From assembly GCA_024628785.1 (NCBI GenBank), contig CP102405.1:1302001-1366000 (forward strand): a DNA stretch of 64,000 bases, in the 5' to 3' direction. Below are positions 4,613 through 12,948 of the stretch, piece by piece. The number at the start of each line of letters is the position of its first letter. The stretch's first letter is position 1. The DNA is from Fusobacteria bacterium ZRK30. GTDB taxonomy: Bacteria; Fusobacteriota; Fusobacteriia; Fusobacteriales; Fusobacteriaceae. The notes under the pieces are model-generated. The model had not been told where the DNA came from. It saw only the letters and a list, made by a program, of their open reading frames with translations, and searched no databases. Made by a program: the position numbers and the translations under genes.

Positions 4613-5530
4613 CTACTTCATCAACTTTACTACGCCAGGAATATTGAAAGTTTCCCCTTTATACTCTAAGATAGCAGCATCTTCACCTAGATAATCTACT
4701 ACCTTTGCTTCTCCTACTTTATTCTCTTCAAATCCTAAGAATTTGCCGTTGAATTCGATTTTTTCTCCCTGTTTATAGACACCTAATTTTGTACCTATTT
4801 CTACATTACTTTTTTGACCTGCATTGATATAAAGTTTATTTCCAGAGACCTTAGCTACATTTGCCATCCAAGGTGTTTTATCGACAGTTTTTATAATGTT
4901 GTCCATAACGTTTATAGCTGCGGCTCTAAAGGCTTCTTGTTCTAGGCCTTCATCATATCCACCTGTACTCCCTATACCTAAAGTAGTTCCATACTCAACG
5001 TCTGAGACACCCTCTCCTTGATCAGAGAGAACTACTTCTCCAGTTCTTACATTTATCATCTTCATGTCAAATGAGATCTCGGCTCTTTGAGTTTTGCTGC
5101 TAGAAACGATCCCTTTATTTCCAGTTGTATTTACGGAATATTTAGTGATCGCACCTGTTATAACATAGTCTGCATCCTGGAACTTTCTTTCAGATGCTAA
5201 CTGCCCCTGTCCCAGAGTATTAGAAAAATTAATCTCCTGCATTACTTTAGATAGATCTTCCCTCTCTAAAACAATAAATCTGTTACTTTTTACCAGTTCT
5301 GTAGTGATAACATCAGTTAAGCTGCTTCCCAATCTTCTGCTGCCAAATCTAGTCTGATTCTTAAACTCAGCTATGACAACTTTTCTCTTAGGAGATACTA
5401 CCCCTTGTACAGAATCGTAATCTCTCATACTTTGGATCTTATCATCTTTCCTTACATTAGATACACCATCGTTAGAACAAGCACCTAGTGTCAATGCTAA
5501 TAGAGCAACTATTAATAGTTTTTTTTTCAT
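4613..5530 (-). CDS. CsgG/HfaB-family outer-membrane lipoprotein
   Basis: A 305-residue lipoprotein (lipobox TLGAC, Cys18) with a CsgG-type fold: KVVIAEFKNQTRFGSRRLGSSLTDVITTELVKS, FIVLEREDLSKVMQE and ADYVITGAITKYS. The glycine-rich stretch at about 180-195 (GTTLGIGSTGGYDEG) is where CsgG-like proteins have a transmembrane hairpin. About 80 extra C-terminal residues (VSGNKLYINAGQKSNVEIGTK onward) resemble a small beta-barrel domain like the one at the end of FlgT. Its start overlaps the nrnA stop by one base (TAATG). No curli subunit genes are present, so a role in curli export is not implied. Confidence 0.87.
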   Translation of the reverse strand: MKKKLLIVALLALTLGACSNDGVSNVRKDDKIQSMRDYDSVQGVVSPKRKVVIAEFKNQTRFGSRRLGSSLTDVITTELVKSNRFIVLEREDLSKVMQEINFSNTLGQGQLASERKFQDADYVITGAITKYSVNTTGNKGIVSSSKTQRAEISFDMKMINVRTGEVVLSDQGEGVSDVEYGTTLGIGSTGGYDEGLEQEAFRAAAINVMDNIIKTVDKTPWMANVAKVSGNKLYINAGQKSNVEIGTKLGVYKQGEKIEFNGKFLGFEENKVGEAKVVDYLGEDAAILEYKGETFNIPGVVKLMK

Positions 5531-6543
5531 TATTTGCCTCCTGAACTCATATTTTTAATTATTATATCCAATATTTCATGGGAACTTTTGTCGGTTTTAA
5601 ATCCAGCAGCCTTAATATGACCACCGCCTCCGAAAAGACCTGCCAAAGCATTTACATCTACAGCGTATTTAGATCTGAAACTCCCCTTGATATGACCCTT
5701 ATCCTCTTTGAGAAAGAGGGATACACTTGCATCTTCATATGAAAGAAGAAGTTCTCCTAAACCACTGGTATCATCTTTACCAGCCCCTAATTCAGCTAGT
5801 TCTGTCTCACTAATATAATAGTACACCAACTTCAGATTATCTACAAATTTAAAGTCAGACAGAACTCTTCCTGTTAACTTTAATTTCCCCATAGATTTAG
5901 TATTGAAAAAATTCTTTATAACTTCATTTGGTTCTACCCCATATTCCACTAATTCGGAAGCTATTCTAAAGACCTTCTTAGTAGTGTTTGAATGTTTAAA
6001 ATTACCGGTATCATTTACTATTCCTGTGTAGAGAGATTCTGCTATCCCATGGTCTAGTTCAATCCCAGCCTCTTTGATAAAATCGAATAAAATTTCCGAA
6101 GTAGATGAAATATCTCCAACATAGTTATAGTCTCCAAACCTGTCATTGCTGATATGGTGATCGATATTTATAACTTTAGTATCTTCACCCTTTAATTCTC
6201 CTACCCTTCCAATTCTGTCAAAATTACCACTGTCAAGGCAGATCATAAGATCAAAATCATATTTTGAGTTATAGTTTTCAAATTCTTCGATTAGAATAGA
6301 GTGGGTTAAAAACTTTAAATTTTTAGGAGTTTTATCATCTAAAATAAACCTTAAAGTTTTATCTAAATAGATTTCACCTTTCTCTTCAGTTTCTTTTCTC
6401 AAAGTTTCATTTAATTTGTTGAGAGCTAAAAGGAGAGCCAAACCACTTCCTATAGCATCTCCATCAGGGCTGGTATGTCCTGTAATTAATATTCTGTTAC
6501 TTTTTTTTATAACTTCTAATATATTACTAAACTTATTGTTCAT
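5530..6543 (-). CDS. nrnA: DHH/DHHA1 phosphoesterase, NrnA-like nanoRNase/pAp phosphatase
   Basis: NrnA-type enzymes degrade very short RNAs and dephosphorylate pAp (3'-phosphoadenosine 5'-phosphate). The 337-residue sequence has motif I TGHTSPDGDAIGSGLAL, the DSGNFDRIG metal site, DHH in NIDHHISNDRFGDYNYV, and TGIVNDTGNFKHSNT. The DHHA1 domain ends in FGGGGHIKAAGF, the RNA-binding GGGH motif. It overlaps folK-tudS by 11 bases upstream and csgG by one base downstream, so it is translationally coupled in the run. Compared with typical members of about 320 residues there is a short insertion near residue 45. Confidence 0.9.
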   Translation of the reverse strand: MNNKFSNILEVIKKSNRILITGHTSPDGDAIGSGLALLLALNKLNETLRKETEEKGEIYLDKTLRFILDDKTPKNLKFLTHSILIEEFENYNSKYDFDLMICLDSGNFDRIGRVGELKGEDTKVINIDHHISNDRFGDYNYVGDISSTSEILFDFIKEAGIELDHGIAESLYTGIVNDTGNFKHSNTTKKVFRIASELVEYGVEPNEVIKNFFNTKSMGKLKLTGRVLSDFKFVDNLKLVYYYISETELAELGAGKDDTSGLGELLLSYEDASVSLFLKEDKGHIKGSFRSKYAVDVNALAGLFGGGGHIKAAGFKTDKSSHEILDIIIKNMSSGGK

Positions 6544-7426
6544 CCTTGTTCACCTCGATTATGTCTATTCCTTTCAGCAGAAGTTTGTCTGCTGTCATTC
6601 CATTTCCGGGAATGATATTCCTCTTAAAAGTTCCATCATATATAGTATCTATTCCACAAGACGGGCTTTTTCCTTTTAATAGTGCAAGTTTTATATCATT
6701 TTTTAATGCTTTTTCCAGAGCTTTTTCTGCTCCTTTCTCAAATTCATCGGTGACGTCTATACCTTCAACATTTATTACTCTATCACCGTTTCTTTCAGCG
6801 GGCAGGCGGGGGATACTAAGCCCTCCCTCTACTTCTGGACAAGTTTCTACAAATTCAAATCTGTCCTTTAGAAGTTCAGCTACAATATAATTATAATTAG
6901 CTGAACCTTTATATGAAGTTTTTTTCCCAACAAGACAACTGCTGATTAGGAGTTTTTCTTTTTTCTGAACTCTGACACTTTTATCGTTATAATCTATGAT
7001 AGATCTGATGTAGCCTCTATCTCTAATAACGTCTAAAAGAGGGATCAGAACAAAATTTCTTTCCTTATATCTAGGATGAGGTATAACTAAATCCTTATTA
7101 TTCAGCTTGAGATTTCCAAAGGATATAATATCTATATCTAAAGTTCTAGGACCCCACCTGAATTTTCGGACCCTCTTTAACTTTAACTCTATCCTTTGAA
7201 GTTCTCTCAAAAGTTCATAGGGAAGCAGCTGGGTTTTTATCTCAATTGCACAATTTAAAAATTTATCTTGATCTAAGTATCCTACTGGGTCTGTTGAATA
7301 AAATTTTGAAATAGCAGTGACTTTAGTTTTTTTTAGTTGAGATATAGCAAAAATACCTCCTAAAAGATAGTAATATTTATTTCCTATATTAGATCCCATA
7401 CTGAGATAAACTCTAGTCCATCTCAT
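6533..7426 (-). CDS. folK: Fusion: HPPK (FolK) with a DUF523/TudS thiouracil-desulfurase domain
   Basis: Residues 1 to about 150 are 6-hydroxymethyl-7,8-dihydropterin pyrophosphokinase: YLSMGSNIGNK, FYSTDPVGYLDQDKFLNCA, FRWGPRTLDIDIISFG and HPRYKERNFVLIPL, covering the pterin and ATP/Mg sites. Residues from about 155 to 293 are a DUF523 domain, the family of the iron-sulfur 2-thiouracil desulfurase TudS, with three conserved Cys in LLISSCLVGKKTSY, FVETCPEVEGGLSIPR and GKSPSCG. Both halves look complete. The gene overlaps folB by 14 bases and nrnA by 11. The N-terminal step (dihydropterin diphosphate synthesis) follows FolB directly; why a desulfurase is attached is unknown. Confidence 0.9.
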   Translation of the reverse strand: MRWTRVYLSMGSNIGNKYYYLLGGIFAISQLKKTKVTAISKFYSTDPVGYLDQDKFLNCAIEIKTQLLPYELLRELQRIELKLKRVRKFRWGPRTLDIDIISFGNLKLNNKDLVIPHPRYKERNFVLIPLLDVIRDRGYIRSIIDYNDKSVRVQKKEKLLISSCLVGKKTSYKGSANYNYIVAELLKDRFEFVETCPEVEGGLSIPRLPAERNGDRVINVEGIDVTDEFEKGAEKALEKALKNDIKLALLKGKSPSCGIDTIYDGTFKRNIIPGNGMTADKLLLKGIDIIEVNKDEQ

Positions 7427-7787
7427 AATTTTTAGCCTCTCTGGTTATTGCTACTCCTACATAGTCAAAACTTCCATTTATAGGAGCGCCAGGTTTTCTA
7501 ATCTCTACTTCGACCTTTTCTATACTGTATTTTACCAATAAAGTATGAGCAATCATCTCAGCTAAAGCTTCTATCAATTTAAATTTTTTATTCTTTATGA
7601 TATCTTCAACATCATAATATACATCTACATAGCTGATACTTTTATTTAGGTCATCTGTAAGACCTGCCCTTTGTAATGGTTTATATAGGGTTACATCAGC
7701 ATAAAAGTTTTGTCCCAGTATATTTTCCTCAGTTAAAGCACCGTGATATCCGTATGCCTTTATATTTTTTACTATTATTTTGTCCAT
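7413..7787 (-). CDS. folB: Dihydroneopterin aldolase
   Basis: FolB converts 7,8-dihydroneopterin to 6-hydroxymethyl-dihydropterin and glycolaldehyde, the step before FolK. The 124-residue length is standard. Signatures are IKAYGYHGALTEENILGQNFYADV, ISYVDVYYDVEDII, LIEALAEMIAHTLL and the C-terminal VEVEIRKPGAPINGSFDYVGVAITR with the conserved Lys and Pro. It is the first gene of the folB-folK-nrnA-csgG-DUF799-sepF run; GGAGG precedes the ATG. Confidence 0.96.
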   Translation of the reverse strand: MDKIIVKNIKAYGYHGALTEENILGQNFYADVTLYKPLQRAGLTDDLNKSISYVDVYYDVEDIIKNKKFKLIEALAEMIAHTLLVKYSIEKVEVEIRKPGAPINGSFDYVGVAITREAKNYEMD

Positions 7788-7876
7788 TGTTCTCCTCCAA
7801 GAGTTATTATTATTATTTGGGAAATTATAACTTTTTTCAATAAATTAAAACATTATAAAGGCTCAAATAACGCTTA

Positions 7877-7907
7877 ACTGGATGCAACGTCACGTTGCTA
7901 ATCCAGT
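7877..7907. repeat. Dispersed palindromic repeat, copy 1
   Basis: The core GGATGCAACGTCACGTTGC is a palindrome. Here it is flanked by ACTGGAT and ATCCAGT, extending the hairpin. The repeat supplies the stop codon of the YitT gene (minus strand). Related copies lie at 25461, 29808, 38817 and 58348. Confidence 0.75.
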
Positions 7908-8767
7908 GATTTAAAACCCTCACCTAATACTTCATAAACTTCTGAGATGATTATAAAAGCACTTGGATCCACTTGTTTTATGAGAGCCTGAAGATCTCTG
8001 ATCTCCTTATTTTTCAAGACAGTCATAATCATTGATTTACTCTCATCTGTATAGAGTCCCTTAGCTGATACAGCTGTTCCGCCTTTTTTTATATCCTTTA
8101 ATATTATATCTCTTATAAATTCGTATTTATCACTTATAATATAGACCATCTTAGTGTATCCGACACCTTCAAAGATCTTATTGATAACTACGTTAGTTGT
8201 GAACATTGCGATGATTGCATACAATCCTTTTTCAATTCCAAAGATAGCGATTCCACTGGTTATAATAATAGTATCATTGATCATCATACAGTAACCCACT
8301 GGTATCTTAGTAATTTTATTGACCATCTGGGCTACAATATCTGTTCCCCCTGTGCTGCCACCAAATTTTAAAACCAGTCCCAGGCCTACTCCTAATAGAA
8401 TACCTCCAAAGAGTGGTGCCAATAAAAAATTACTCCCCTTTGTAAAATCTATTACGTTATCTATTCCTACAAGCTTTCTAAAAAGGTCTATATAAAATGA
8501 TAACATTATGATTCCAAACAATGTTTTTGCACCATACTCCTTACCAAAAGTTTTAACCCCTACTAAAAATAGAGGAATATTGATAAACAGCATACTGGTT
8601 CCAACAGATAGATTAAATGTATAGTATAGGATAGTTGCTATTCCTGTTACCCCGCCACTGACTATCTTTGCAGGTACGATAAATAACCCTATTCCTATTG
8701 CAGCTATAATAAGCCCTAAATTAATTACAAAATAATCTATTGCCAACGTTTTTACCTTTCTTTTCAT
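7898..8767 (-). CDS. YitT family membrane protein (DUF161/DUF2179)
   Basis: An integral membrane protein of 289 residues: about five or six hydrophobic helices (residues about 10-200) rich in Gly, with GLFIVPAKIVSGGVTGIATIL and GGSTGGTDIVAQMV motifs, then a cytosolic DUF2179 domain (about 205-289, VYIISDKYEFIRDIILKD ... GLYTDESKSMIMTVLK). The biochemical role of YitT proteins is not settled. It starts 26 bases after hprK and is probably in the same transcript. Its last codons run into the dispersed repeat. Confidence 0.9.
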   Translation of the reverse strand: MKRKVKTLAIDYFVINLGLIIAAIGIGLFIVPAKIVSGGVTGIATILYYTFNLSVGTSMLFINIPLFLVGVKTFGKEYGAKTLFGIIMLSFYIDLFRKLVGIDNVIDFTKGSNFLLAPLFGGILLGVGLGLVLKFGGSTGGTDIVAQMVNKITKIPVGYCMMINDTIIITSGIAIFGIEKGLYAIIAMFTTNVVINKIFEGVGYTKMVYIISDKYEFIRDIILKDIKKGGTAVSAKGLYTDESKSMIMTVLKNKEIRDLQALIKQVDPSAFIIISEVYEVLGEGFKSLD

Positions 8768-8793
8768 TCCCTTTTTGCCCCCCTAGTTATATC

Positions 8794-10698
8794 TTATATA
8801 AATTCTTGATGTCTTACTTTACCCTTGTATGCTTTTTCAGGATCATAACCATATTTTATAGCTATTAAGTTCATAATAGTAGTTTCTACCATGGTAGCAG
8901 CATTCCTTCCAGAACTTATATATAGTTCTGCATGGTCTACAGGATGACCTAAAACTTCGACTTCGATACCCTTAGAGGTAGAAGTTTTAGTCAGGTAATC
9001 ATCACTTTTCAATTCTTTCAGTTCTATGATTGCATCCAATCTTTTTTCTTTTCTTACAGATCCTAATCCATAAAGAGCTTTGATATCTATGATTCCGAGA
9101 CCTCTAAGTTCCATAAAATAAGGAATTTTATCGGCTTTTCCTATGACCATTCCACTGGGATGTTCATGGAAAGTTACTTTATCATCTGTAATCAATCTAT
9201 GTCCTCTATGAATTAACTCTAGAGCGGTTTCACTCTTACCAATTCCACTTTTACCAGTAAGGAGAACACCAAATCCAAACATCTCAACAAAAACTCCATG
9301 CATGGTGATTTTAGGAGCAAACTTTTTTTCTAAAAATTGGTTTAAATCTGCCGTTAGCTGGGTAGAAGTTTTATCAGAAAATAACATGATCTTCTTTTTT
9401 TCCCTGGATAGATCGATAAAACATTGTTCAATCTCATCTGCATCTGCTATTATCGTAGCAGGAAAGTCAAAATCAAAAAAATTGTTTAAATTTCTATATT
9501 TAACATCATCATCTAAACTCTTTAAAAAATTTAATTCTCCTTGGGAAAATAGTTGTAAACTCTTAGAACCATTTTGATAAAACACTTCATAAAATCCAGA
9601 AAGTGCCAAAGCAGGGTTGTGAAGTGCAGTCTTAGTTATATAAGTTGTTTCTAAAAATTCCTCTCCTGTAATAACTTTTAGATCAAATTCCTCGACTATT
9701 TTTTTTACTGTCAAAATATTTTTATTCATCTTATCACCTTTCTTATTCTCTTTATTAAAAGCGATCATTTTTTTAGTTTCCTCTAAAAAATATTCAGAAG
9801 AATTCATTCCAATTTGTTTCAACCTTTCGTTTATAGCTGCCGTTTCAATGATTACAGCTAGATTTCTTCCTCTTCGTACAGGAAGACTTAGCTTAGGAAT
9901 TTGAACTCCCAGGATCTCTTCGAATTGTTTATCGATTCCCAATCTGTCATAAAATTTTCTTTTATCCCATTTCTCCAGGTTGATATATAGGTTTATTTCC
10001 TTAGTTCTCCGAGTTGCAATGATCCCATAGTTATTGGTAATATCTATATTTTCACTGCCTGTTCCCAGATAAAAATGTGTTTTAACGTTACTCTTATCAA
10101 AACCATTTTCTCCTAAGAGGATATCGGGCCCGATTTTTTTAATGATTAAATTTTCATCTGTAATATATTTGTGGCCCCTTTCGATTAATTCCAGGGTAGA
10201 TCCAATTCTTGCATCCTCATAACCGCCTATCAAAACACCTATTCCTAGGATTTCGATTAAAACATGATCCTCTACCCTTATTTCAGGTGCTAATTTTCTT
10301 TGGAGATAATATTTTAATTTCCTTATGATAACTGCAGTTTTATTTTTAGTAGTCAAAAGAGGTTTATTGTGTTTTTTAGCATATTCTATGAAATCAGGAT
10401 GGATGTCCTTATCACAGGCTACGATGATACAAGGGAAATTATAGGAAAAATATTTTTTTAGTCTGTCCTTTCTCACTTCTGAGGAGAGGGAATCAATATA
10501 CCTCATCTCCTCTGTTCCCAAAACGTGTAGCTGCTTATTGAGTTCATCTCCCTCGACTAAAAACCCGGTTAATTCAGCTCCTACTCTATGCACTGTAGGG
10601 AGTAAGATCTTTCTTTCTAGATTATCTAATCCCCCATAGATTACAGTGAATTCAAAAGCTTTTACTAATTTTGATAATCTTACAAATTTTTTAATCAT
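8794..10698 (-). CDS. hprK: Tandem HPr kinase/phosphorylase with a degenerate N-terminal copy
   Basis: HprK/P phosphorylates and dephosphorylates HPr on Ser46 in carbon catabolite control; the usual length is about 310. This protein has 634 residues and two full-length copies. The C-terminal copy (324-634) looks active: P-loop GKSGIGKS (482-489), HRLITDD, and the signature around FMELRGLGIIDIKALYG. In the N-terminal copy (1-323) the P-loop has become GGYEDARIGST (158-168), the DD pair is DE, and the signature loop is replaced (HFYLGTGSENIDITN), so it should not bind ATP normally. Codon 324 is an ATG with its own Shine-Dalgarno. The gene follows the one-TM protein gene by 35 bases. No ptsH is in the window. 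Confidence 0.93.
   Translation of the reverse strand: MIKKFVRLSKLVKAFEFTVIYGGLDNLERKILLPTVHRVGAELTGFLVEGDELNKQLHVLGTEEMRYIDSLSSEVRKDRLKKYFSYNFPCIIVACDKDIHPDFIEYAKKHNKPLLTTKNKTAVIIRKLKYYLQRKLAPEIRVEDHVLIEILGIGVLIGGYEDARIGSTLELIERGHKYITDENLIIKKIGPDILLGENGFDKSNVKTHFYLGTGSENIDITNNYGIIATRRTKEINLYINLEKWDKRKFYDRLGIDKQFEEILGVQIPKLSLPVRRGRNLAVIIETAAINERLKQIGMNSSEYFLEETKKMIAFNKENKKGDKMNKNILTVKKIVEEFDLKVITGEEFLETTYITKTALHNPALALSGFYEVFYQNGSKSLQLFSQGELNFLKSLDDDVKYRNLNNFFDFDFPATIIADADEIEQCFIDLSREKKKIMLFSDKTSTQLTADLNQFLEKKFAPKITMHGVFVEMFGFGVLLTGKSGIGKSETALELIHRGHRLITDDKVTFHEHPSGMVIGKADKIPYFMELRGLGIIDIKALYGLGSVRKEKRLDAIIELKELKSDDYLTKTSTSKGIEVEVLGHPVDHAELYISSGRNAATMVETTIMNLIAIKYGYDPEKAYKGKVRHQEFI
9727..9741 (-). 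promoter_or_regulatory. Internal ribosome-binding site and start codon inside hprK
   Basis: On the minus strand AAAGGTGAT (9733-9741) precedes an in-frame ATG (9729-9727). This would allow separate synthesis of the catalytic C-terminal HprK copy (311 residues, the normal family length). Confidence 0.55.
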
Positions 10699-10733
10699 AA
10701 GCCCCCCTATTATTTATTGGTGTTATTCCATAG

Positions 10734-10970
10734 TTAGTTTTTCTTTTTTTTATAAAAATCATCTGGTCTGATACTTAGTTCTATCTCTTTTTCAACTGTT
10801 TTTTCATCATTTTTGTTGAGATCTATATCTTTCACTGTTTTTTTTACCTCTACTACCTGATCTCTGCTTTTGCTTTTATTCCCTGAGATCTTTTGAGTTA
10901 TAAAATATCCCCCTGAAACAACAATCAAAATTAAGATAAACCTCCAGAATAGAACTTGTTTTTTCGTCAT
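10734..10970 (-). CDS. Small single-pass membrane protein, unknown
   Basis: A 78-residue protein with an N-terminal membrane helix (about residues 8-25, VLFWRFILILIVVSGGYFI) and a highly charged Lys/Asp/Glu tail ending KKKKN. It starts 4 bases after folC and ends 35 before hprK, so it is surely co-transcribed with them. I do not recognise the family. The layout (short cytosolic start, one helix, charged exterior) suits a membrane-anchored accessory protein, but nothing indicates a function. Confidence 0.7.
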   Translation of the reverse strand: MTKKQVLFWRFILILIVVSGGYFITQKISGNKSKSRDQVVEVKKTVKDIDLNKNDEKTVEKEIELSIRPDDFYKKKKN

Positions 10971-10974
10971 GATT

Positions 10975-12207
10975 CTACCTCATTTGAATAGTTTTTTTGA
11001 ATTTGGATAACAAATAAAATGATCCGCAGATAACAATAATTTTATTTGTTTTTTTAGCTAGGTCAAAAGCTTTCATGAGATTATCTTCTACTATTTGATC
11101 TTTAAAATCAGGTACTAGATCTACTAATTCACTTCCTGAAGTCCCCCTATGAAAATCCTCTAATGATGTAAATATTATCTCATCACTAAATTTTGAAATT
11201 TCCTCTAGGATACCATCTCTGTCTTTATCTTCTAAGATAGAGACCAAAGTAACGATATCTCCCTTTCTATATTTAGATAAGATATTTTCCTTTAATCTAG
11301 ATGCAGCATCTACATTATGAGCACCGTCTAATATTATGATTGGATCCTCTTTGGAATAGATCTCAAACCTGCCAGGCCAAGAAACTTTAGATACTGCATC
11401 CTGTATATTTTGATCTGGTATTCCTATTTTTTTTAAGGCTTCATATGCTCCTAAAAAATTATTTATTTGATACTCTCCATAAAGAGACAGGTTAAATTCC
11501 ATATTATCTATATAAATTTTAGTTTTAAAATCTTCTGTCAGTTCAAATTTTACATCACCATATTTTTTTATCACATCAACATAGTCTTTAGTTTTTTCCT
11601 CAACAGCTGCTATTAATTCTGGTTTAGAATCAGCAACTATAACAGGGCTGTCTTTGATAATACCACATTTTTCAAAAGCTATATCATTCAGATTATCACC
11701 TAAAATATTTACATGATCCATGGATATATTGGTGATTATAGAAATTTCAGGATGACAAACATTGGTTGCATCAAAACGGCCTCCTAAACCGGTCTCTAAA
11801 ACCACATATTCACAGCCGCAATCTTTAAAGTAATCAAACATCATTGCAGTAGTGATCTCAAAGAAGGTTGGATGTAGATCATTGACTTCAATTAAGGTTC
11901 TTATTCTTTTATAGTAGGAGCATATTCTTTCATCTGATATTTGTTCCCTATCTACTACAATTCTTTCATTGAATTTTTCAATATGAGGTGAGGTATACTT
12001 TCCTACCTTATAACCTGCTTCTAATAGGCTGGCTTCTAAAATACTTGCTGTAGACCCCTTACCATTGGTTCCTGCAATGTGCAGGATTTTATAGCTGTCC
12101 TGGGGGTTTCCCATTAATTTTAATATATTTTTTATATTGTCTAGTCCCAACTTTATTCCCATATTAGTAAGGGAGTAAAGTTCTTCTAAGGTTTTATCTA
12201 TATTCAT
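10975..12207 (-). CDS. folC: Folylpolyglutamate/dihydrofolate synthase
   Basis: FolC adds glutamate to dihydropteroate and folates with ATP. The protein has the Mur-ligase-like P-loop HIAGTNGKGSTAS, YTSPHIEKFNERI, ETGLGGRFDATNV, ITNISMDHVNILG and WPGRFEI with DGAHN near residue 300. I place the start at the ATG of MNIDKTLEE, because AAGGAAGT sits 6 bases before it; an in-frame ATG 30 bases upstream would make a 420-residue protein but lacks such a site. mtnN lies just upstream and the small TM gene just downstream. Confidence 0.93.
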   Translation of the reverse strand: MNIDKTLEELYSLTNMGIKLGLDNIKNILKLMGNPQDSYKILHIAGTNGKGSTASILEASLLEAGYKVGKYTSPHIEKFNERIVVDREQISDERICSYYKRIRTLIEVNDLHPTFFEITTAMMFDYFKDCGCEYVVLETGLGGRFDATNVCHPEISIITNISMDHVNILGDNLNDIAFEKCGIIKDSPVIVADSKPELIAAVEEKTKDYVDVIKKYGDVKFELTEDFKTKIYIDNMEFNLSLYGEYQINNFLGAYEALKKIGIPDQNIQDAVSKVSWPGRFEIYSKEDPIIILDGAHNVDAASRLKENILSKYRKGDIVTLVSILEDKDRDGILEEISKFSDEIIFTSLEDFHRGTSGSELVDLVPDFKDQIVEDNLMKAFDLAKKTNKIIVICGSFYLLSKFKKTIQMR

Positions 12208-12255
12208 AATTTGACTTCCTTTCAACTGTTTTGTCATGAATTATACAAATTAAAA

Positions 12256-12948
12256 TTATACTCTTTTCATCATCTCTACAATTAAGTTTTTAGAGTTCTT
12301 AGCTGCTAATTTTACAAATTCTTGGAAATCTGTTTTAGCATCGTCATTTGCCTTATCTGAGATAGATCTTATGATTACAAATGGAATTTTGAATAGGTGG
12401 CACACATGAGCTACTGCTGCTCCTTCCATCTCTGTACATTCACTGTTGAAAGTTTCTCTTAACCAATTTATCTTTGCAGGTTCAGCTACAAATACATCTC
12501 CACTTACTATTCTTCCTGTATAAATATTTTTCTGGTCAAATAATTCCAGAGCACTTTTTTCTGCTATTTTAATCAATTTTTTATCGGCTTTAAAGATAGA
12601 AGTCTCCATTCTAGGAATCTCTCCATGTTTCATTCCAAAAGCTGTACAGTCAAAGTCATGCTCTATGAGTTCGTTTGAGATAACTATGTCTCCTACTTCT
12701 ATATTAGGGTTAGTTCCCCCTGCTACCCCTGTAAATATAAGCTGATCTACTTTAAATCTATCGATCAATAGAGTGGTGCATACAGATGAATTTACCTTAC
12801 CTATTCCTCCCTCTACCAATACAATATCCTTTCCTTCTAAAGTTCCTTTGAAGAAGGTAATATCTAGTATTTTCTCCTCCTCTAAATTTGAAATCATATT
12901 TTTTAATTCTATTATTTCCTCGTGCATAGCACCAATTATTCCTATCAT
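12256..12948 (-). CDS. mtnN: 5'-methylthioadenosine/S-adenosylhomocysteine nucleosidase
   Basis: MtnN (Pfs) hydrolyses MTA and SAH to adenine and the thio-sugar, recycling SAM by-products. The 230-residue length is typical. Motifs are IGIIGAMHEEI with the catalytic Glu, LIFTGVAGGTNP, the substrate loop TEMEGAAVAHVC and IRSISDKAND with the catalytic Asp. It is the first gene of the minus-strand run that continues through folC and hprK; AGGAGG precedes the ATG, and AT-rich promoter sequence lies between it and the divergent LPP20 gene. Confidence 0.95.
   Translation of the reverse strand: MIGIIGAMHEEIIELKNMISNLEEEKILDITFFKGTLEGKDIVLVEGGIGKVNSSVCTTLLIDRFKVDQLIFTGVAGGTNPNIEVGDIVISNELIEHDFDCTAFGMKHGEIPRMETSIFKADKKLIKIAEKSALELFDQKNIYTGRIVSGDVFVAEPAKINWLRETFNSECTEMEGAAVAHVCHLFKIPFVIIRSISDKANDDAKTDFQEFVKLAAKNSKNLIVEMMKRV

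What the first reader, a model, noticed from the sequence alone, without database searches (positions are those of the whole stretch)
8794..10698. Double HPr kinase: dead N-terminal copy fused to a live C-terminal copy
Both halves align over the full HprK length, but the first has lost the P-loop lysine and serine (GGYEDARIGST instead of GKSGIGKS), one Asp of the DD pair and the signature loop. HprK is a hexamer, so a covalently attached pseudokinase could act as a sensor or regulatory ring. I cannot tell whether this is peculiar to this strain or common in the lineage.
Basis: partly seen in the sequence, partly recalled or inferred. Interest (0 to 1): 0.7.

Follow-up and report, generated by a model that had tools for sequence, protein, structure and literature searches.

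The report
Twin HPr kinase sharing one active site
In Fusobacteria the enzyme that controls sugar uptake by tagging the protein HPr is a doubled chain in which each copy has kept one half of the shared active site and lost the other, so the supposedly dead first copy is most likely a working half of the enzyme.

Summary
Minus-strand ORF 8794-10698 (634 aa) holds two full-length HprK copies, and copy 1 has a broken P-loop, DD pair and signature. It is not strain-specific: of 98 Fusobacteriota genomes searched, 69 have hprK, and wherever the gene is complete it is double (one genome has a shortened double). A tandem HPrK in F. nucleatum was reported in 2008.

The reading "dead copy plus live copy" is incomplete. 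Copy 2 has itself lost the other half of the active site: Arg245, the proline and arginine of the K3 loop, and the C-terminal HPr-docking helix. A published structural description places those parts on the neighbouring subunit of the hexamer. All 60 double proteins show the same clean swap; 87 of 93 single HprKs keep both halves. So each fused chain has kept one of two reciprocal composite sites and abandoned the other.

Support: a relative reduced to 269 aa keeps only copy 1's donor half and copy 2's acceptor half. Where HprK is lost, the target HPr has Asn instead of Ser46 (20 of 21).

A conserved ribosome-binding-like site at the junction suggests that free copy 2 is also made (inferred). 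No biochemistry was done.

The parts
8794..10698 (-). hprK, fused double HPr kinase/phosphorylase, 634 aa
10303..10683 (-). copy 1 N-terminal domain (Hpr_kinase_N, residues 6-132)
   Evidence: fold matches DRTGG regulatory domains 3l31/3l2b at Z about 10.7
9748..10287 (-). copy 1 kinase-fold domain (residues 138-317): keeps the whole fold, lost nucleotide-binding residues
   Evidence: AF2 model to 1kkm_A Z 18.1, rmsd 1.7, 174 aligned
10195..10227 (-). degenerate P-loop of copy 1, GGYEDARIGST, one residue shorter than a canonical P-loop in every copy 1 aligned
9937..9951 (-). copy 1 YDRLG with the Arg245 equivalent (R252), donor element kept 60/60
   Evidence: role from PMC9399212
9862..9882 (-). 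copy 1 K3 loop PVRRGRN, donor element
   Evidence: role from PMC9399212 and PMC2937029
9742..9861 (-). copy 1 post-K3 stretch and C-terminal helix (HPr docking side); Phe and Ile of the helix 60/60 in copy 1
9727..9738 (-). possible internal ribosome-binding site and start: GGTGAT-aag-ATG (M324) at the first residue of copy 2
8797..9729 (-). copy 2 (residues 324-634), full-length HprK
   Evidence: AF2 model to 1ko7_A Z 25.6, 283 aligned
9298..9300 (-). copy 2 His140 equivalent (H467)
   Evidence: 60/60 in copy 2, 0/60 in copy 1
9232..9255 (-). copy 2 intact P-loop GKSGIGKS
9181..9186 (-). copy 2 Asp-Asp pair (D178/D179 equivalents)
   Evidence: 60/60
9088..9114 (-). copy 2 HprK signature MELRGLGII with the Glu204 equivalent
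   Evidence: 60/60 for E, R, G, G
8902..8922 (-). copy 2 degenerate K3 loop YISSGRN (Pro and first Arg lost; GRN kept)

Best explanation
The protein is an HPr Ser46 kinase/phosphorylase whose two fused copies have divided one composite active site. In canonical HprK, a hexamer, each active site is built from one subunit's P-loop, His140, Asp179, signature and Glu204 (the acceptor side) and a neighbour's Arg245 loop, K3 loop and C-terminal helix (the donor side). In the fusion, copy 2 is the acceptor and copy 1 the donor. All losses fall in the other, reciprocal site, which is dead. A ring of three chains would then carry three working sites instead of six. Shown here: the residue partition, its conservation across the lineage, the single origin of each copy, and the reduced relative that keeps exactly the two halves. 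Taken from papers: which subunit supplies which residue. Inferred: the trimer-of-fusions assembly, that copy 1 donates to copy 2 of its own or an adjacent chain, and activity on HPr Ser46.
For: Acceptor residues in copy 2 vs copy 1 of 60: His140 60/0, Ser157 60/2, Gly160 60/0, Ser162 60/0, Asp179 60/8, Arg206 60/2. Donor residues in copy 1 vs copy 2: Trp235 59/0, Arg245 60/3, Gly247 60/2, Pro266 60/0, Arg/Lys268 60/0. The 97 single rows keep both at about 92-100%. Per protein, all 60 show copy 1 with at most 1/6 acceptor and 5/5 donor, and copy 2 with 6/6 acceptor and at most 1/5 donor. Conservation swaps between the halves (Mann-Whitney p 2.8e-12). phmmer of the whole chain against single HprKs splices copy 2's front half to copy 1's back half. 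Helix Phe 60/60 vs 5/60; 9 of 60 copy 2s end before the helix. Subunit roles from PMC9399212; D3 hexamer with HPr at subunit overlaps from PMC9138534. Mini-form L054: 269 aa, profile positions 98-169 then 6-118, AF2 pTM 0.83. HPr: Ser46 in 16/16 HprK+ genomes sampled, Asn in 20/21 of HprK-less ones.
Against: No assembly, kinase or phosphorylase data exist here. No coordinates were available, so donor-to-acceptor contacts in the model were not measured. The subunit assignment rests on one full-text source. The HPr correlation is one evolutionary event, because the HprK-less genomes with this HPr form one clade on rpoB. Gly270, Arg271 and Asn272 of the K3 loop are kept in both copies. Alpha-proteobacterial HprK lacks the C-terminal donor region and still acts as a kinase (PMC2937029), so copy 2 might manage the kinase step alone.
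Confidence: 0.78

Rival explanations
1. Copy 1 is a regulatory pseudokinase or sensor ring, and copy 2 is a self-sufficient kinase.
For: Copy 1 has lost nucleotide-binding residues in all 60 sequences. Copy 1 keeps its N-terminal domain, whose fold resembles DRTGG regulatory domains. Alpha-proteobacterial HprK without the donor region still phosphorylates its substrate (PMC2937029).
Against: It does not explain why copy 1 keeps exactly the donor residues at 59-60/60 while copy 2 loses them, nor why the 269-aa relative discards copy 1's N-terminal domain and P-loop region but keeps its donor half.
Confidence: 0.12
2. Division of labour by reaction: copy 2 alone is a kinase, and copy 1 is added in trans mainly to allow phosphorolysis of P-Ser-HPr. 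This is a weaker form of the best explanation and overlaps with it.
For: The C-terminal/K3 region is described as important for phosphorylase activity, and enzymes without it are kinases with barely any phosphorylase activity (PMC2937029).
Against: Arg245 and the C-terminal helix also contact HPr in the canonical enzyme (PMC9399212), so the kinase step should also be weakened.
Confidence: 0.3
3. Domain swap: copy 1's back half folds into copy 2's front half to make one permuted domain, rather than lending residues across an interface.
For: The reduced relative is nearly a permuted single domain (profile positions 98-169 then 6-118).
Against: In the model each copy matches a complete HprK catalytic domain on its own: copy 1 residues 138-317 to 1kkm_A Z 18.1, copy 2 residues 328-629 to 1ko7_A Z 25.6.
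Confidence: 0.07
4. An artefact: two separate genes joined by a sequencing or assembly error.
For: None found; one incomplete genome (G003) has a broken frame in this gene.
Against: The same fused frame is open in about 60 independent genomes.
Confidence: 0

Closest known systems
Canonical HPr kinase/phosphorylase (L. casei 1JB1/1KKL, S. xylosus 1KO7, M. pneumoniae 1KNX)
   Same: Both copies carry the N and C domains; copy 2 has P-loop, DD and signature; copy 1 has Arg245, K3 loop and C-terminal helix.
   Different: Canonical chains are about 310 aa and every subunit is both donor and acceptor; here the roles are fixed on two fused copies.
Tandem HPrK of Fusobacterium nucleatum (Comas et al. 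2008, PMC2405797)
   Same: The same architecture, reported as a fusion of two HPrK domains in tandem.
   Different: In the passages retrieved the paper does not describe the reciprocal loss of active-site residues, its conservation, the reduced form, or the link to HPr Ser46.
Truncated alpha-proteobacterial HprK (Brucella, PMC2937029)
   Same: Lacks the conserved C-terminal donor region, as copy 2 does in effect.
   Different: No fused copy supplies it; phosphorylase activity is poor. It also lacks the N-terminal domain.
ABC transporters with one degenerate composite ATP site, such as CFTR (from general knowledge, not tested here)
   Same: Two fused P-loop domains form two composite sites and the losses fall in one of them.
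   Different: Unrelated fold and function.

Membership tests
HPr kinase/phosphorylase (TIGR00679 / PF07475 + PF02603) | Profile match over curated cut-off | tested here: met
   TIGR00679 505.6 bits against a cut-off of 240; PF07475 292.8 bits; PF02603 195 bits
HPr kinase/phosphorylase (TIGR00679 / PF07475 + PF02603) | Walker A GxxGxGKS, DD pair and signature [ILM]E[IV]RGxG[IV] | tested here: met
   Met in copy 2 (60/60 at the key positions); not met in copy 1
HPr kinase/phosphorylase (TIGR00679 / PF07475 + PF02603) | Arg245, K3 loop PV[RK]xGR and C-terminal helix | tested here: met
   Met in copy 1 (60/60); not met in copy 2, which keeps only GRN of the K3 loop
HPr kinase/phosphorylase (TIGR00679 / PF07475 + PF02603) | Fold of the solved enzymes | tested here: met
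   1ko7_A Z 25.6 for copy 2; 1kkm_A Z 18.1 for copy 1's kinase domain
HPr kinase/phosphorylase (TIGR00679 / PF07475 + PF02603) | Substrate HPr with Ser46 in the same genome | tested here: met
   HPr with NGKSIMG beside ptsI, and a second HPr with KGTSLLK
HPr kinase/phosphorylase (TIGR00679 / PF07475 + PF02603) | Hexameric assembly and kinase/phosphorylase activity | not testable with these tools
   No assembly or enzyme data; AF2 run on the single chain only
Gram-positive type catabolite repression (HprK, HPr and CcpA) | CcpA equivalent | tested here: not met
   No protein in the genome passes the TIGR01481 cut-off of 442 bits; best LacI-type hit 189.6

The most novel reading that the evidence does not exclude
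One gene makes two proteins, the donor-acceptor fusion and, from an internal start at the copy 1/copy 2 junction, free acceptor copy 2, so that the cell can set the ratio of complete (donor-equipped) to donor-less sites in an asymmetric HprK ring and thereby its kinase-to-phosphorylase balance.
Probability: 0.3. Interest if true: 0.75.

Novelty: new variant of a known kind. Interest (0 to 1): 0.6.

Why it matters
HprK is the switch of sugar regulation in many bacteria, and its six identical sites at subunit interfaces have been hard to take apart. Fusobacteriota carry a natural version in which donor and acceptor roles are fixed on separate, fused domains, so the contribution of the neighbouring subunit to kinase, phosphorylase and cooperativity becomes directly testable by mutating one copy at a time. 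It also shows a pseudokinase-like domain that is most likely half of an active site rather than a bystander, and a reduced relative that marks the minimal set. The genus Fusobacterium includes common human commensals and opportunists, where carbon regulation is poorly known.

Tried and rejected
Assembly or sequencing error joining two genes: rejected. Copy 1 acquired from another lineage: not supported; each copy is one clade (100/99 and 100/98), and once long branches are left out the two fall together but with weak support (61/21), so sisterhood of the copies is not shown. Doubles outside Fusobacteriota: none seen among the single HprKs gathered from Bacillota, Chlamydiota and Mycoplasmatota or in phage and plasmid records, but other phyla were not surveyed. 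Viral contigs: no relative. One control row (L157) was a wrong ORF (RapZ) and two (L154, L158) were truncated; these explain a few of the deficits among the 97 rows, and one search leaves L157 out. Weak third PF07475 hits in G066 and G068: the G066 one lies on a protein that reads as a MiaA-type enzyme and was not followed. Key structure papers (Fieulaine 2001 and 2002) are not held, so the subunit assignment comes from PMC9399212. The HPr Ser46 link is one event, not many, on the rpoB tree; the RecA tree places the mini-form with Sebaldella (98/96) and does not reject one clade of HprK-less genomes (p 0.21).

Full report
Observation. The minus-strand ORF at 8794-10698 encodes 634 aa, starting at ATG behind a GGGGGG ribosome-binding site. 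Pfam and NCBIfam see two complete HprK copies, each with N and C domain. Copy 1 reads GGYEDARIGST where copy 2 reads GKSGIGKS, has DE instead of DD, and lacks the signature.

How widespread. All 98 Fusobacteriota genomes held were searched. Of these, 69 have hprK. Wherever the gene is complete it is double, with an open frame of about 605-675 aa, except one shortened form (G080); a few more are cut by contig ends and one incomplete genome (G003) has a broken frame. Doubles occur in the window's own family, in two other families of the order, in Sebaldella termitidis (G092, identified by its exact chromosome length of 4,418,842 bp; PMC3035275), and in a class-level outlier (G097). The relatives of Sebaldella mostly lack hprK. 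A named member is Fusobacterium vincentii. The tandem architecture itself was reported for F. nucleatum in 2008 (PMC2405797). Each copy is one clade (100/99 and 100/98), so the duplication is older than the split of these lineages. That the two copies are sisters is likely but weakly supported.

The reciprocal loss. A search of the whole protein against solved structures already hinted at it: the best alignment to a single HprK takes the front half from copy 2 and the back half from copy 1. Aligning 60 doubles with 97 rows of single HprKs (one row, L157, is a wrong ORF) shows two sets of residues. The acceptor set (His140, Ser157, Gly160, Ser162, Asp179, Arg206 and others) is complete in copy 2 in 60/60 and nearly absent in copy 1. 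The donor set (Trp235, Tyr/Phe243, Asp/Glu244, Arg245, Gly247, Pro266, Arg/Lys268) is kept in copy 1 in 59-60/60 and lost in copy 2 (0-3/60). Scored per protein, all 60 show this pattern, while 87 of 93 single HprKs carry both sets in full. Conservation follows the same swap: the front half of the kinase domain is better conserved in copy 2 and the back half in copy 1 (p 2.8e-12; columns are not fully independent). The C-terminal helix follows too: its Phe is 60/60 in copy 1 and 5/60 in copy 2, and 9 of 60 copy 2s end before it.

Why the split falls there. In the canonical hexamer one HPr touches two adjacent subunits. One supplies the catalytic site (His140, Lys161, Ser162, Asp179, Glu204). 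The other supplies its C-terminal helix and Arg245, and the K3 loop of an adjacent subunit sits next to the P-loop (PMC9399212). The hexamer has a three-fold axis crossed by two-fold axes, and HPr binds where two subunits overlap (PMC9138534). If the two copies pair reciprocally, they form two composite sites: one from copy 2's P-loop side and copy 1's donor side, which is intact, and one from copy 1's P-loop side and copy 2's donor side, in which every element is degraded. That single statement accounts for all the losses. The pairing geometry is an inference; no coordinates were available to measure it.

Models. AF2 of the window protein (51 sequences) gives mean pLDDT 84.3 and pTM 0.70. Copy 2 matches full-length S. 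xylosus HprK (Z 25.6, 283 residues) and copy 1's kinase domain matches L. casei HprK (Z 18.1, rmsd 1.7, 174 residues). So copy 1 keeps the complete fold without nucleotide-binding residues, which argues against a domain swap.

A natural reduction. In G080 the gene codes for only 269 aa. It consists of a remnant of copy 1 that lacks the N-terminal domain and the P-loop region but keeps FDRLG, IPIKKGR and the C-terminal helix, followed by copy 2's kinase domain without its N-terminal domain. Profile positions are 98-169 followed by 6-118, that is, the donor half and then the acceptor half. Even the GRN that copy 2 keeps elsewhere is gone. It lies in the same gene neighbourhood, mtnN upstream and a DHH-family gene downstream, and RecA places the genome beside Sebaldella (98/96), so it derives from a double. 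It is a single case in an 88%-complete assembly.

Substrate. The window's genome has an HPr with NGKSIMGLMLLAAEQG (Ser46) directly after ptsI and a second HPr. In the first type, Ser46 is present in 16 of 16 sampled genomes with a double or reduced HprK, and is Asn in 20 of 21 HprK-less relatives; several others have no such HPr. On the rpoB tree these HprK-less genomes are one clade, so this is one correlated event. It still says that the target serine lost its use when the kinase was lost, and that the reduced form is probably active. No protein in the genome reaches the CcpA cut-off, so what P-Ser-HPr controls here is open.

Possible second product. At the junction, an in-frame start codon with an SD-like sequence is found in all 60 genes. 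In the main test (ATG/GTG only) mean pairing energy with the anti-SD is -8.2 kcal/mol, close to the genes' own starts (-8.8); 97% reach -4 or lower, against 10% of equal-sized control windows. Part of this comes from the amino acids of the linker: shuffling synonymous codons still gives -5.8 to -6.9, and the remaining difference has p 8e-4 over 19 groups, uncorrected for descent beyond that grouping and with several groups showing no difference. In one genus all 11 species use GTG there. In the window the site is GGTGAT-aag-ATG at 9727-9738. This suggests that free copy 2 may also be made; it is not proof.

Verdict. Real, lineage-wide, and architecturally known. The new element is the reciprocal division of the active site, which turns the "dead" copy into the likely donor half and the "live" copy into an enzyme that lacks its own donor side. 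I found no earlier description of this in the library, which lacks most subscription journals.

Noticed in passing
9727-9738 (-); same junction in 60 relatives: A ribosome-binding-like sequence and in-frame start codon at the first residue of copy 2, as strong as the gene's own start.
   Followed up: partly
L212-L228 and L237-L243 (HPr genes of HprK-less genomes): Where HprK is lost, the HPr of the ptsI-linked type has Asn instead of Ser46 (20 of 21); several genomes have lost this HPr altogether.
   Followed up: yes
L054:1112-1921 (+): A 269-aa reduced HprK made of copy 1's donor half and copy 2's acceptor half, without either N-terminal domain.
   Followed up: yes
window 5530-12948; L054; L152: Conserved neighbourhood: an mtnN-type and (not in L054) a folC-type gene upstream of hprK and a DHH-family gene downstream; the window has a YitT-type and fol genes in between hprK and the DHH gene.
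   Followed up: no
   Followed up: no
L069 / L027 (G003): The hprK frame is broken in this incomplete genome; a real lesion or an assembly error was not decided.
   Followed up: no
records NZ_CP084075, NZ_CP154629 and MT835632-MT838421: Chromosome-sized replicons filed as plasmids, and 'Bacteriophage sp.' faecal records that carry an hprK and may be bacterial contamination.
   Followed up: no
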